A DNA stretch of 64,000 bases from NCBI GenBank assembly GCA_033977485.1, contig CM066995.1:48917162-48981161 (forward strand), in the 5' to 3' direction. Position numbers and translations under genes: made by a program. Source of the DNA: Hydrangea macrophylla. Taxonomy: Eukaryota; Streptophyta; Magnoliopsida; Cornales; Hydrangeaceae. Numbering within the stretch: the stretch's first letter is position 1; every line of letters begins with the position of its first letter. This document shows, piece by piece, positions 260 to 11,997 of this stretch. Under the pieces are notes generated by a model. That model was not told the DNA's origin, ran no database searches, and saw only the letters and a list, made by a program, of their open reading frames with translations.

Positions 260-274
260 CACTACAAGGAAAAA
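260..274 (+). repeat. CACTA left terminal inverted repeat
   Basis: CACTACAAGGAAAA, matching the right end read on the minus strand (CACTACAAGAAAATTTG) apart from one or two bases. The preceding AGA is the target duplication. Confidence 0.9.
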
Positions 275-279
275 GGCCT

Positions 280-680
280 TTTATGTCACTTAAAAAGTGA
301 CATAAATAGGTATTTATGTCACTTTTTTTTCCAGTAAAAAGTGACATAAATGGAGGCGACATAAATGTTTTAAAAGTGACATAAATGTTTTAAAAAAGTG
401 ACATAAATGTTTCATAATACCAACACATATGTTAATAAAAAGTGACATAAATACTTAAAAGTGACATAAATACTATTTTATTTATGTCACTTTTAACCTA
501 AAGTGACATAAAAGTAAAAAAGTGACATAAATACCAAACAAAATTATTACATCAAAGTCTTAAAAGTGACATAAATACTTTAAAAGTGACATAAAAACTT
601 TAAAAGTGACATAAATACTTGATGAAAGTGACATAAATGCTTTTTATTTATGTGGGTTTTCTTAAAAGTGACATAAATGT
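280..680. repeat. CACTA left subterminal repeat region
   Basis: Roughly twenty copies of AAGTGACATAAAT or its complement ATTTATGTCACTT, some as head-to-head pairs around T or A runs that could form hairpins. Such arrays in CACTA elements are the binding sites of the TNPA-type accessory protein. That role is known for the class and inferred here. Confidence 0.85.
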
Positions 681-950
681 TTCCAAATTTTTTTTTAAAA
701 AATGGTGATTGCATGTATCAATATTACCACCCTGTACAAAACTAAATGCGGCTCAATAATCAATTCCAACAACTAAATTAATACTCAATAATCAATTAAT
801 ATATCATTACAACCAATCAATTCCATCTATTCATATCTACCAAACAATTCCATTCCATCTATTCAACATTATAATATTAAACAAAAGCATGTCTAAAAAG
901 AAACCAATGCATCAACAGCTGTAATATACCCCTATATCAGGAGTACAGAC
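681..950. other. AT-rich CACTA interior, nothing recognised
   Basis: AT-rich sequence with short ATTCCATCTATTCA-type direct repeats at about 822-860. No coding fragment seen. It would lie downstream of the last captured exon on the minus strand. Confidence 0.5.
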
Positions 951-1043
951 CCTCTCTGAGAGATTGTGGACCTCTGCAGCCCTTGATTTCTTTGTTGATC
1001 CACGAACTTGTTTCTTTGCATTAGGTGACTCAAACTCGACATC
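951..1043 (-). pseudogene. Captured exon of a PIF1-like bHLH transcription factor
   Basis: The minus strand gives an uninterrupted 31-codon exon, from DVEFES through KKQVRGST to SRAAEVHNLSER. The last twelve residues are the start of the bHLH basic region of phytochrome-interacting factors, and the upstream part most resembles PIF1/PIL5. The fragment opens after an acceptor (GTCATAG) and stops at a donor (AGG then GTCTGT). That is where I recall PIF genes being interrupted, before the RRRDRINEKM stretch. The helix-loop-helix and the APB motif are absent, so it cannot bind DNA or phytochrome alone. It is the furthest downstream of five captured fragments on this strand. The family assignment is firm; the exact paralogue is inference. 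Confidence 0.85.
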
Positions 1044-8212: not shown

Positions 8213-8948
8213 AGCACCTAGGATTAGAGGCTAAATCCAAAAGGATTCTACCAAAAAAATGGGACTCCCTGAAATGTTATCAAGGTATGAAAGCAATTGT
8301 AGAAATGACCTTAAGTTTTGTGACCTAGAAAAATGGGATGAATTTGGGTTTTTGTGCACTACCGATCAACCTAGTTTTATTACAAACAAAAGCTTCATCA
8401 AACAAACACCGTATTCACTTTTCCAAATGTACAGCCCCATACACACTCCCAGAATCGATCATCGACAATCACAAAAGCAAAACCATAAGCAACCCCAAAC
8501 CCCTTCATCACTGATTCCCTTCACTTTTGTCTAGATGTCTTCACTTTTGAAGTGAAACCTATCCGACGCATGGTTCGTTAAATTCGAAGTTAAAAGAAAT
8601 TAAGAAAGAATGGACTCAATGGTTTACGCATTGGCACAATGCAATAGGCTATGTCTGCAACCACATGAAACACAATTTTCAAAGCAACTCAAGAACAACA
8701 TAAGTGAAAAAAAATGCAATTTTCAAATCCTCGTAGATAAGAATGATCTTTTATACTCGGGTTTTAAATCCTTTGAATATCTTTTCTCTTCCTCTTCCAT
8801 GCACTTGAAAATTGAAACAATGAAATTATCGAGTAAAAGAGAGTAGTTAATATAAAATTACAACATTAAAGTTTGTATTAAAAAAACATGATCAATTTAT
8901 AATAGTGTGAGGGTAAATTCTCTGAAGTGACTAGGTAATATAGGGGTT
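8213..8948. other. CACTA interior, nothing recognised
   Basis: Two open frames of 91 and 78 codons on the plus strand (8259-8534 and 8610-8846) resemble no family I know and have unbiased composition. I do not call them genes. Confidence 0.35.
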
Positions 8949-9142
8949 AATAGACAATCAAGTGAGTGGAAGCAATGTAAATTGAATTTAGACAAGACTA
9001 ATACAGCTAGTTGGATTAATTAGGTTTTCATATCAATATTTCGCTAATAGATAATCAAGTGAGTGGAAGCAATATAAATTGAATTTAGACAAGAATAATA
9101 GAGCTAGTTGGATTAATCAGGTTTTCATATCCATATTTTGCT
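8949..9142 (+). repeat. 97-bp tandem duplication
   Basis: Two adjacent copies of a 97-bp unit (8949-9045 and 9046-9142), each containing AATCAAGTGAGTGGAAGC and GAGCTAGTTGGATTAAT-like sequence, differing at a few positions. Confidence 0.85.
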
Positions 9143-10269
9143 ATCCTACACTACCACCTTATGGTGTGATTGGAAGTTCGAAAACTACATTTTAATCTCT
9201 ACTATTGGTCTCTTAATTTCCCGAAGAAAAAAATGAGGGATAAACAAAAACATTCTGAATAATTTTTTTCGATGTTTTGTCAATTGTCTGAGCACCCAAA
9301 CCAGGGCTAAAAATATGAAGTTTACATTGGTATGATTAAGATTAATATATTTTAACCAAAATACAGTGAACTGAAGATAGAACCAGCACCAAGACACCGA
9401 ATACGACACTAAACAGACCCATTTCGAAATCTAAAACCATCATTACTAAAGGAACTGATCTCAAGCACCCTTGCATTAAGAAAAAAAAATTGAAGGCACA
9501 AACACCCAAAAGCAAAAAATATAGATCCAGTATAGACAACATATTGAATACAGGAAAACCCAATGTCCATTGGGTTTAAAAAAACTAGGGTTTGAATCAA
9601 CACATAAACAAAAACCCAGAAAAATAGAACTGAGCATAAAAATGGAAACAATATATATATATAGAGAGAGAGAGAGAGGGAGAGATGATCCTGGGATGAA
9701 GATAAGCAACTCACACACATGAACACACACATATGCTAGTCGATCAACCCCTCAAACACACAAGAACACACGCACTCAAGAATTGAGTACACACAAAGAT
9801 CGCAATCCGACAAATACAAAAAACCACAGTAACATGAATCGCACACACACATCGATCTACAAAGTTAGGGTTTGAGTTTTACCGGTGAAAGTGTGAGAGT
9901 TGACAGCATGAGCAAGTAACAAAGTGTGACCGGTGAGGCTTCAACGACGATGACTGGTGAGATTTCAACGACGATGATAGGAGAGAGTGTGACCGATGAG
10001 ACACCATCGTCAATCGCCCCCAGGCTCGATATGTATTTCTCCATACTTTGTTTTGAGAAATAAGCCCTAAAATTTAACTAAGGAAATTTTAGATTTAGGG
10101 CTCTTCTTCTCCAGCCTGGAGTGGAGTGGTAGGCTCTTCTTCTCCAGTTTAGATTTAGGGCTCGGGAAATTTGTGGAGGGAAATTTGGGCAAATTTGAGG
10201 AGGGAAATTTGCAAAATGTTACTAAGAGATCGAGAGCTATGGGCTAAAAAGAGCCAGCGCTGTTTCCGT
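9143..10269. other. CACTA interior near right end, possible leader of the chimeric transcript
   Basis: Contains an (AT)n(GA)n tract at 9648-9685 and, on the minus strand, pieces that look like plant 5' untranslated sequence: AACCCTAACTTTGT near 9865, repeated TCGTCGTTGAA at 9941 and 9970, and CTGGAGAAGAAGAGCC repeated at 10100-10150. All captured exons are transcribed leftward from here, so a promoter in this region is plausible. That is inference from position only. Confidence 0.3.
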
Positions 10270-10640
10270 GCGCATAAATTTTTTTTATGTCGCTTTTTCT
10301 GAAAAATTAGATTTTTATGTCACTTTTTATAAAAAGTGACATAAAAATGAAATCTTTTATTTACAAAAATGCCACCGTGTTTTTATTTATGTCAATTTTT
10401 AAAAAGTGACATAAATGTATTATTATTTAAGTCACTTTTTTTAAAAAGTGACATAAATGATAGAGTATTTATATCACTTTTTATAAAAGTGACTTAAATA
10501 CTCTATTATTTATGTCACTTTTTTTTAAAAGTGACATAAAAACCTAAAAAGTGACATAAAAAGCTAGGATGATAAATAATTATGTCACTCAAAATCAAAG
10601 TGACATAAATGCAATTTAAAAAGTGACATAAAAAGCAAAT
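10270..10640. repeat. CACTA right subterminal repeat region
   Basis: More than a dozen copies of AAAAGTGACATAAA or its complement, several as close inverted pairs, mirroring the array at 280-680. Confidence 0.85.
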
Positions 10641-11997
10641 TTTCTTGTAGTGAGAAGTAAATCTAAATTATGAAAGCAATTAAATATTTGTTTTTATAAT
10701 AAGTTTAAGGAACCTAGGATTGCAAATCCACCACTAGCTTCATAATTAGGGTATTTATGAATTACTTTAGCTTATTAAGTTGGATGATAATGGGGAATTG
10801 TAGCTACAAGCCCAATTCCTCCGTCAAGAAAATAACTATGGTTCAAGCACCAACATAATCCATCTTCGGTTCGTACGAATTATCCCACACTAAACTAGGG
10901 TTGTGGAATAATCTGTCTAACCTAGGCATGGACTATTCGAATACTTGATAGCACAATTCACTAAAGCACCATTACATGTAAATAACCTATATAAGCATAG
11001 CAAACATAGATCATTGAGCACATCACAGTCAAAATAGATCTAAGACAAGAATAAACTTTGAAAGTGATGATTTAATCAATTAGAAGCACGATTTATTTAT
11101 AAAAATCCTCGGAACATGTAATCATCATCCATACATAATAAAACTAAAATAAAAATATAAATAAAATACTATTACTTGGCTAGGTTTCATTGAAACCTTA
11201 GATCTTGAGTTTAGTTAGCCATAGAATTGATGAACGGCAAGAGGTTGATGGAGGAGGCCATGGGAATCCTTGGTCTTCTTCTTCTTCTCCTTGTTTTTCT
11301 CTCTTCAATGGCTGGAGTTTTTACGTATATGGCTGTGTATAATGTTGTGTAATGATTTAAAACCTTCAATTTGATTTAGAATTGGATTTATATAGAGTTT
11401 GGAAAAATTTAGGAAGCTTTCCTAAGTCAAATCACACTAAAACAGCTTTATTACGTTTCTGGAGGTATTCAGCCAATTTGGATCGCACAGGGCTCTTCAG
11501 GACCTCAAAATATGCAACTTTGACTTTTTCAACGGGTCGCTCGGACGGGTTGCACGAGCAGGTCGCTCGCGCGGGCGCTCTAGCCAATTTCCACTTTTCC
11601 AACTTTTCTCAGATTTTCTGCTACTCTGCGCACCAATCGTAGAATTACGATAACGTTTTACTCGAACTCGTATTGACTCACCGTTTGCGGCCACGCATCC
11701 GTAACTCGAAGTTCTACATTTTATATCTATGGAGAAATTTCACAAATCTGAAGTATTCCTTATAAAAAGTGCGATTTTAAGAGGCTGCTACTGCATTCAG
11801 TTTTCACCAGAATCACCGTTTGAGACCAGAATGACTTCCAAAGCCACTAATCATTGAATTTTTGTGCATTTTCAAGTTAAACTTCCAAACCCTACAAAAT
11901 TTAGAATACTTATTAAAAAAATAACTAATAACTACATGAAATGGACTAACAAAGCGTATTTTTAGGATTATAAACGGCAAGTATTCGTCGCCGATCA

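What the first reader, a model, noticed from the sequence alone, without database searches (positions are those of the whole stretch)
260..10652. Pack-CACTA carrying co-oriented exons of at least five unrelated host genes
Inside one delimited CACTA element I can name fragments of katanin p60, PRP31, LOG, nsLTP and a PIF1-like bHLH. All are on the minus strand, in the order katanin, PRP31, LOG, LTP, PIF1 from right to left. Nearly all open and close at intact splice sites. Random capture would give mixed orientations; five of five in one direction suggests selection for, or a mechanism favouring, a spliceable chimeric transcript read from the right end. If expressed it could make a novel protein or antisense/small RNA against five genes.
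Basis: partly seen in the sequence, partly recalled or inferred. Interest (0 to 1): 0.88.

Follow-up and report, generated by a model that had tools for sequence, protein, structure and literature searches.

The report
Fused gene-shuffling transposon with mixed cargo
This plant jumping element carries pieces of five ordinary genes, and other elements in the same genome that carry its left part and its katanin part separately show that it was likely made by fusing two such elements; the pieces do not all point one way and would not join into one readable protein, so it is a well-documented example of a known kind of gene shuffling.

Summary
The element is real: CACTA ends 260-10652, AGA duplication on both sides, subterminal repeats, no transposase domain found. 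All five named fragments are confirmed, and a second katanin exon (5701-5863) was missed. The one-direction claim fails: a piece of a third LOG exon lies on the plus strand at 1785-1844, so 5 of 6 captured blocks agree, which chance readily gives (P = 0.22). Splice sites are intact on both sides in 5 of 8 exon pieces; LOG and LTP are fused inside an exon, out of frame, and katanin is frameshifted. Native counterparts were located for katanin, PRP31, LOG and LTP; introns match for the first three, so genomic DNA was copied, not mRNA. Sister copies show the history: two (C10, C15) carry 260-4238 (PIF1, LOG, LTP, PRP31) with a different right half; another (C7) carries 4243-8024 (katanin) behind its own left end; neither type holds the other's gene blocks. 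The window element is most likely a fusion of two Pack-CACTAs, as in the published tandem-insertion model. Soybean Tgm-Express1 is the close precedent: five fragments, spliced into chimeric transcripts. New member of a known kind. No RNA data were available.

The parts
257..259 (.). target-site duplication AGA, left copy (right copy 10653-10655)
   Evidence: flanks AGA and AGA; sister copies carry their own duplications AAG (C10) and CTC (C15)
260..291 (+). left terminal inverted repeat CACTACAAGG...
   Evidence: 27 of 32 bases match the right end
280..690 (.). left subterminal repeats, GTGACATAAA unit
951..1043 (-). PIF1-like bHLH exon (DVEFES..HNLSER), AG before and GT after
   Evidence: best E 2.3e-9 in the joined search; 89 proteins; 2-codon deletion against relatives
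1785..1844 (+). piece of a third LOG exon (TIGEVKAV..HMQQRKAEMA), opposite strand to the other gene pieces
   Evidence: 56 of 60 bases to LOG exon sequence at C15:97.43 Mb, plus/plus; present in the C10, C15 and C2 copies
1870..2017 (-). nsLTP block: 3' part of exon (1922-2016) and start of intron; no acceptor
   Evidence: 132 of 148 positions to the LTP gene at C18:114.80 Mb
2028..2076 (.). 23-bp tandem duplication at the LOG-LTP fusion
   Evidence: the LOG gene at C15:97.43 Mb runs on there without it
2048..2396 (-). LOG block with two exons (2245-2315 and 2051-2128) and the native intron; second exon cut, no donor
   Evidence: 84% over exons and introns to C15:97.43 Mb
3059..3271 (-). PRP31 block: exon 3134-3199 with native intron sequence on both sides
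   Evidence: native PRP31 genes at C2:93.99 and C2:90.81 Mb with further exons; the block runs to 789 bp in sister C10
3269..3273 (.). likely deletion scar: about 1.59 kb present in the sister copies is missing here between AAGAA repeats
   Evidence: the missing DNA continues the native PRP31 match in C10
3350..3606 (.). Stowaway-like MITE, absent from both A sister copies at the same site
   Evidence: 30-bp inverted ends; precise empty site in C10; flanks 99-100% in C10 and C15; the name is recalled
4238..4243 (.). joint of two element lineages, with a few filler bases
4971..5886 (-). katanin p60 block: exon b 5451-5538, exon a 5701-5863 (4-bp insertion, frameshift), native introns
   Evidence: native gene C10:151.18-151.21 Mb; insertion shared by C7 and C3 copies
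10282..10645 (.). right subterminal repeats
10621..10652 (-). right terminal inverted repeat

Best explanation
The stretch 260-10652 is a CACTA transposon without a detectable transposase, whose left 4.0 kb (PIF1, LOG, LTP and PRP31 pieces) and whose katanin-carrying part occur in separate elements elsewhere in the same genome, so it likely arose by fusion of two gene-fragment-carrying (Pack-)CACTA elements. Shown: the blocks with a located native counterpart (katanin, PRP31, LOG, LTP) are copied genomic DNA; introns match for katanin, PRP31 and LOG, and the start of one for LTP. The blocks are joined without regard to frame, one LOG block is inverted, and the window, C10 and C15 copies have different target-site duplications. 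Inferred: blocks were likely gathered when neighbouring family members inserted near genes and one hybrid element was formed by aberrant excision and end-joining of the inner ends; the hybrid was then likely moved by transposase from an autonomous relative. Predicted: if transcribed, the surviving splice sites would yield varied chimeric, mostly non-coding RNA, as in soybean Tgm-Express1. No step needs selection on the chimera.
For: Ends and duplications. No transposase domain among Pfam matches in six frames of 701-10279. Lineage A: the C10 and C15 elements match 260-3273 and 3604-4238 and the right end, and give no hit at E 1e-5 to 4245-10230. Lineage K: C7 has its own CACTA left end and matches 4243-8024; of 720-4237 (MITE left out) it matches only 725-779 at 80%; C3 matches 4244-5585 with other sequence before it. 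Native counterparts: katanin, PRP31, LOG, LTP. Decay and frame breaks. Model and precedent: PMC8903248 and PMC13317346 (passages), PMC1947982 (passages and section 5).
Against: The fusion step is inferred from few copies (A: C10 and C15; K: C7 and part of C3). The part 8024-10232 is not matched by C7, so the right half may hold a further joint. A native PIF1 source was not confirmed. The joint at 4238/4243 has a few filler bases, which end-joining explains but template switching would too. No RNA, methylation or small-RNA data. Five of six blocks do share a strand, which a weak bias could also give, and the plus strand is A-rich over the interior (skew +0.089 against a mean of -0.048, sd 0.048, over 175 overlapping stretches elsewhere in the window), as expected if much of the interior is intron of minus-strand genes.
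Confidence: 0.83

Rival explanations
1. Selection or a directional mechanism keeps captured exons in one orientation so that a spliceable chimeric transcript from the right end is made.
For: Five of six blocks on one strand; both splice sites present on 5 of 8 pieces; katanin_b and PRP31 happen to join in frame; A-rich plus strand; Tgm-Express1 fragments were spliced into one transcript, which implies one orientation there (my inference).
Against: 5 of 6 is P = 0.22 and even 5 of 5 would be 0.0625; an inverted LOG block; two separate lineages; frames do not run through; shared katanin frameshift. A captured piece in opposite orientation to the transposase is reported for a grapevine CACTA (PMC2528002, passages).
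Confidence: 0.07
2. The window element is the ancestor, and the A and K forms each lost and replaced one half.
For: The shared halves are similarly close (46 of 2507 and 54 of 2504 sites differ from the A copies in 720-3268; 96.5% to C7 over 4243-5553).
Against: Needs two independent replacements at the same point; C7 and C3 share sequence left of 4243 with each other (C7 5069-5340), and C10 and C15 share their own right half; the window copy lacks 1.59 kb of PRP31-linked DNA that the A copies keep.
Confidence: 0.07
3. An expressed exon trap: inserted in an active gene or driven by its own end, it makes chimeric transcripts by accident.
For: Five pieces keep both splice sites; Tgm-Express1 does this; a right-end open frame 9883-10044 (minus) is followed by GT.
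Against: The flanks in view (only 259 bases on the left) look like repeats rather than a gene (by eye); no protein relative of the right-end frame; no expression data.
Confidence: 0.3
4. A source of small RNAs that match host genes.
For: Blocks are 84-96% like native counterparts (LOG 84%, LTP 89%, katanin 90-92%, PRP31 95-96%); several recur in many places; antisense transcription from the left end would cover most blocks.
Against: Nothing tested here; decay lowers pairing.
Confidence: 0.15

Closest known systems
Tgm-Express1 (soybean CACTA, wp allele; PMC1947982, passages and section 5 read)
   Same: CACTA element with fragments of five unrelated host genes, introns kept, canonical splice sites
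   Different: 5.7 kb in an intron of F3H1, with 12 transcripts cloned, 11 of them holding captured exons; here 10.4 kb in repeat-like flanks, one block inverted, no RNA data, and a two-lineage make-up
Arabidopsis Pack-CACTA and the tandem-insertion model (Catoni 2019, not held; known from passages of PMC8903248 and PMC13317346)
   Same: No transposase, host DNA between family ends, hybrid element as the model predicts from neighbouring insertions
   Different: Here inferred from sister copies in one genome, not seen in action
Ipomoea Tpn1 family (PMC5105172, passages; the 2004 original paper not held)
   Same: Non-autonomous CACTA elements with captured genic regions replacing the interior and conserved ends
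   Different: Different species, repeats and cargo
Maize Helitrons with stepwise capture (PMC3288121, passages)
   Same: Multiple gene fragments gathered over successive transpositions
   Different: No inverted repeats or 3-bp duplication (recalled); not this superfamily

Membership tests
CACTA superfamily | CACTA-type terminal inverted repeats | tested here: met
CACTA superfamily | 3-bp target-site duplication | tested here: met
   (AGA); copies AAG and CTC
CACTA superfamily | subterminal short repeats in both orientations | tested here: met
CACTA superfamily | own transposase (autonomous members only) | tested here: not met
   no transposase among Pfam matches in six frames; non-autonomous members lack it, so this does not exclude membership
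Pack-CACTA | host gene fragments from more than one locus, no transposase | tested here: met
Pack-CACTA | native counterpart of the captured pieces elsewhere in the genome | tested here: met
   4 of 5 genes: katanin, PRP31, LOG, LTP; PIF1 has unconfirmed candidates only, at 71-75%
Pack-CACTA | mobilised as a unit (several copies, own duplications) | tested here: met
   lineage A copies with AAG and CTC; a second copy of the exact window form was not found in the searches that were answered
Tgm-Express-type expressed exon shuffler | chimeric spliced transcripts | not testable with these tools
   no RNA data
Selected chimeric gene | continuous frame through the pieces, kept across copies | tested here: not met

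The most novel reading that the evidence does not exclude
CACTA capture has a polarity: in two lineages built separately, five of six gene blocks read from the same end of the element, and the five of Tgm-Express1 also lie one way, which would mean that capture or survival is tied to the direction of transcription and turns these elements into exon traps.
Probability: 0.1. Interest if true: 0.6.

Novelty: new member of a known kind. Interest (0 to 1): 0.33.

Why it matters
The copies give a natural before-and-after of gene shuffling: two parental element types, the fused product with its joint, and native counterparts for four of five cargo genes in one genome. That makes the proposed fusion route for Pack-CACTA growth checkable base by base, and it shows that apparent co-orientation of a few fragments can arise without selection.

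Tried and rejected
Capture boundary marked by a CACTA insertion: at C2:72.36 Mb an LTP piece abuts a CACTA end exactly at window position 1869/1870. Extending the locus showed an older family copy with a nested CACTA at that point and the rest following behind it, so I dropped it as proof of the capture route. A plus-strand search for further gene pieces (three segments joined) found nothing, and the Pfam six-frame scans gave LOG plus one weak plus-strand match below cut-off (FeThRed_B, E 0.44); one search gave one weak match for the frame 9185-9430 (DNA_alkylation, E 0.074, below cut-off). The plus-strand LOG piece was recognised only by comparison with the native gene, so further short pieces may remain. 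Pfam scans of the part of L009 that covers sister C10's own right half showed no gene fragment; they gave a gypsy-type match in the flank and two weak DUF matches below cut-off. Donor-site counts on the two strands did not help (9 plus, 2 minus above 4 bits). The longest virtual open frame (110 codons, reached by 8 of 500 mononucleotide shuffles) rests on an assumed first exon and stops in katanin exon b. Rfam: no match in the window at gathering scores. PRP31 and PIF1 peptides: no match among solved structures up to E 10. The direction of transposase transcription against the element's ends, the native PIF1 gene and the origin of 9400-10280 stayed open because the genome search did not complete.
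Full report
1. The element. The window holds a CACTA transposon at 260-10652 with ends CACTACAAGGAAAAAGG and its inverted partner (27 of 32 bases), flanked by AGA on both sides. Exact GTGACATAAA units lie only near the two ends in the whole window. Six-frame Pfam scans of 701-10279 gave LOG (two minus frames, one of them below cut-off) and one weak plus-strand match (FeThRed_B, E 0.44, below cut-off), and no transposase. The element looks non-autonomous.

2. The five genes. 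LOG: Pfam E 3.9e-18, and 50 of 50 residues aligned to the Arabidopsis LOG-like structure 2a33, E 6.9e-26. nsLTP: E 2e-13 to 1t12; Pfam was just below cut-off (20.0 against 21.7 bits). Katanin p60: E 4.5e-6 to solved katanin. PIF1: E 2.3e-9 in a database of 5.77 billion proteins (120 of 942 hits listed). PRP31: a 22-residue exon; the best E was only 0.057 at that database size, but 31 of 31 listed hits carry the Nop or PRP31 domain, several at 95% over about 21 residues, and tblastn of fetched PRP31 proteins on the window gave E 1.8e-8.

3. (a) A second katanin exon at 5701-5863, found by tblastn with fetched katanins (31 proteins, best E 5e-16). It carries a 4-bp insertion that shifts the frame. 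(b) A piece of a third LOG exon at 1785-1844 on the plus strand: 56 of 60 bases to the LOG gene, plus/plus, while the other LOG exons are plus/minus. The piece is kept in the C10, C15 and C2 copies. (c) LOG and LTP are fused within an exon next to a 23-bp tandem duplication. So 5 of 6 blocks share a strand, P = 0.22 two-sided; 5 of 5 would be 0.0625.

4. Splicing and frames. Both splice sites are present in 5 of 8 pieces (the plus-strand LOG piece by comparison with the native gene). In the virtual spliced order the native frames are 1, 2, 2, 1, 1, 2, 1 for katanin a, katanin b, PRP31, LOG a, LOG b, LTP, PIF1. Katanin b to PRP31 happens to join in frame; PRP31 to LOG meets a stop after five codons. 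The longest ATG frame is 110 codons (reached by 8 of 500 shuffles), needs an assumed first exon, and holds only katanin a in its native frame. The katanin 4-bp insertion is shared by the copies on C7 and C3 and absent from the native gene.

5. Counterparts in the same genome. G000 (2.22 Gb, 19 contigs; the window is C14:48917162-48981161) answered five searches. Katanin: at C10:151.18-151.21 Mb six protein matches lie in gene order (whether the whole gene is intact was not shown); its DNA matches window 5886-5294 and 5285-4971 at 90-92%, introns included, and both exons are intact there. PRP31: C2:93.99 and C2:90.81 Mb carry the exon with 95-96% identical flanks and further PRP31 exons; C16:73.70 shows only partial matches; C11:85.72 is an intronless copy. 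LOG: C15:97.43 Mb, 84% over two exons and introns. LTP: C18:114.80 Mb, 132 of 148 positions, first-exon frame open from ATG. PIF1: candidates at C1, C4 and C12 at 71-75%, not confirmed. The copied material is genomic DNA.

6. Sister copies and the fusion. The query 1900-2330 found 16 places, the window's own included. Two are full sisters: C10 (9,570 bp, AAG duplication) and C15:77.80 Mb (same form with a nested insert of about 10.5 kb, CTC duplication). Both match 260-4238, apart from about 1.59 kb that the window copy lacks between AAGAA repeats and the MITE that they lack, and both match the right end (84% and 77%). Against 4245-10230 they give no hit at E 1e-5. The query 5400-6500 found 29 places, the window's own included. 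At C7:133.31 Mb an element with its own left end CACTACAAAGAG matches 4243-5553 (96.5%) and 5546-8024 (95.2%); of 720-4237, MITE left out, it matches only 725-779 at 80%; elsewhere in that locus lies a MITE 78% like the window's. C3:22.01 Mb matches 4244-5585 with other sequence before it. At the joint the window reads A-type sequence to about 4238, a few filler bases, and K-type sequence from about 4243. The simplest reading is fusion of two elements. The part 8024-10232 is unmatched in C7 and remains open.

7. Ages. In 720-3268 the window differs from C10 at 46 of 2507 sites and from C15 at 54 of 2504. In a 260-base katanin stretch it differs from C7 at 6, from C3 at 10, and from the native gene at 17. 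Capture is thus likely older than the spread of these copies.

8. Mechanism. A survey and a review describe Pack-CACTA growth by tandem insertions, loss of the inner ends and movement of the hybrid (PMC8903248 and PMC13317346, passages). The A, K and fused forms fit this. A 2007 soybean paper shows a CACTA with five gene fragments whose exons were spliced with the host gene's: 12 transcripts, 11 of them with captured exons (PMC1947982, passages and section 5); that all five lie one way there is my inference from their splicing. [quoted passage not shown] A full-text search for CACTA, 'captured gene fragments' and 'same orientation' together returned no paper. A grapevine CACTA carries a captured piece in opposite orientation to the transposase (PMC2528002, passages). 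Passages were also seen of PMC8978399, PMC5105172, PMC8195511 and PMC3288121.

9. Verdict. A real, richly documented Pack-CACTA; co-orientation is incomplete and not beyond chance; no coding continuity; likely a fusion of two lineages. New member of a known kind.

Noticed in passing
C2:72347001-72386500 (L025, L018, L023, L024); corresponds to window 1869/1870: An older family copy has a second same-family CACTA (about 7.0 kb, flanks TGT/CGT) inserted exactly where the LTP block ends in the window element. It shows no match to the PIF1 stretch 847-1658.
   Followed up: partly
window 860-1645: The PIF1 block with its flanks recurs at 94-97% in at least eight further places beyond the A sisters (C18, C9, C18, C1, C5, C10, C5, C5), with two shared limits (1645 and 1476), so it likely belongs to a larger Pack-CACTA group.
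   Followed up: no
window 5224-5652: A katanin stretch with exon b, with a common limit at 5652, recurs in at least ten places at 92-95%.
   Followed up: partly
C11:85.72 Mb (L055): PRP31 copy matching 485 residues without introns, probably a retrocopy.
   Followed up: no
C6:45.13-45.14 and 45.16-45.17 Mb: Two very similar katanin genes about 28 kb apart.
   Followed up: no
window 11998-13436: Two copies of a roughly 815-bp unit just right of the element.
   Followed up: no
window 13906-14469 minus: 187-codon frame that by eye resembles a copia-type gag; not tested.
   Followed up: no
window 9883-10044 minus: Open frame from an ATG, followed by a GT site, near the right end; no relatives found.
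   Followed up: partly
window 8948-9143: 97-bp direct duplication inside the element.
   Followed up: no
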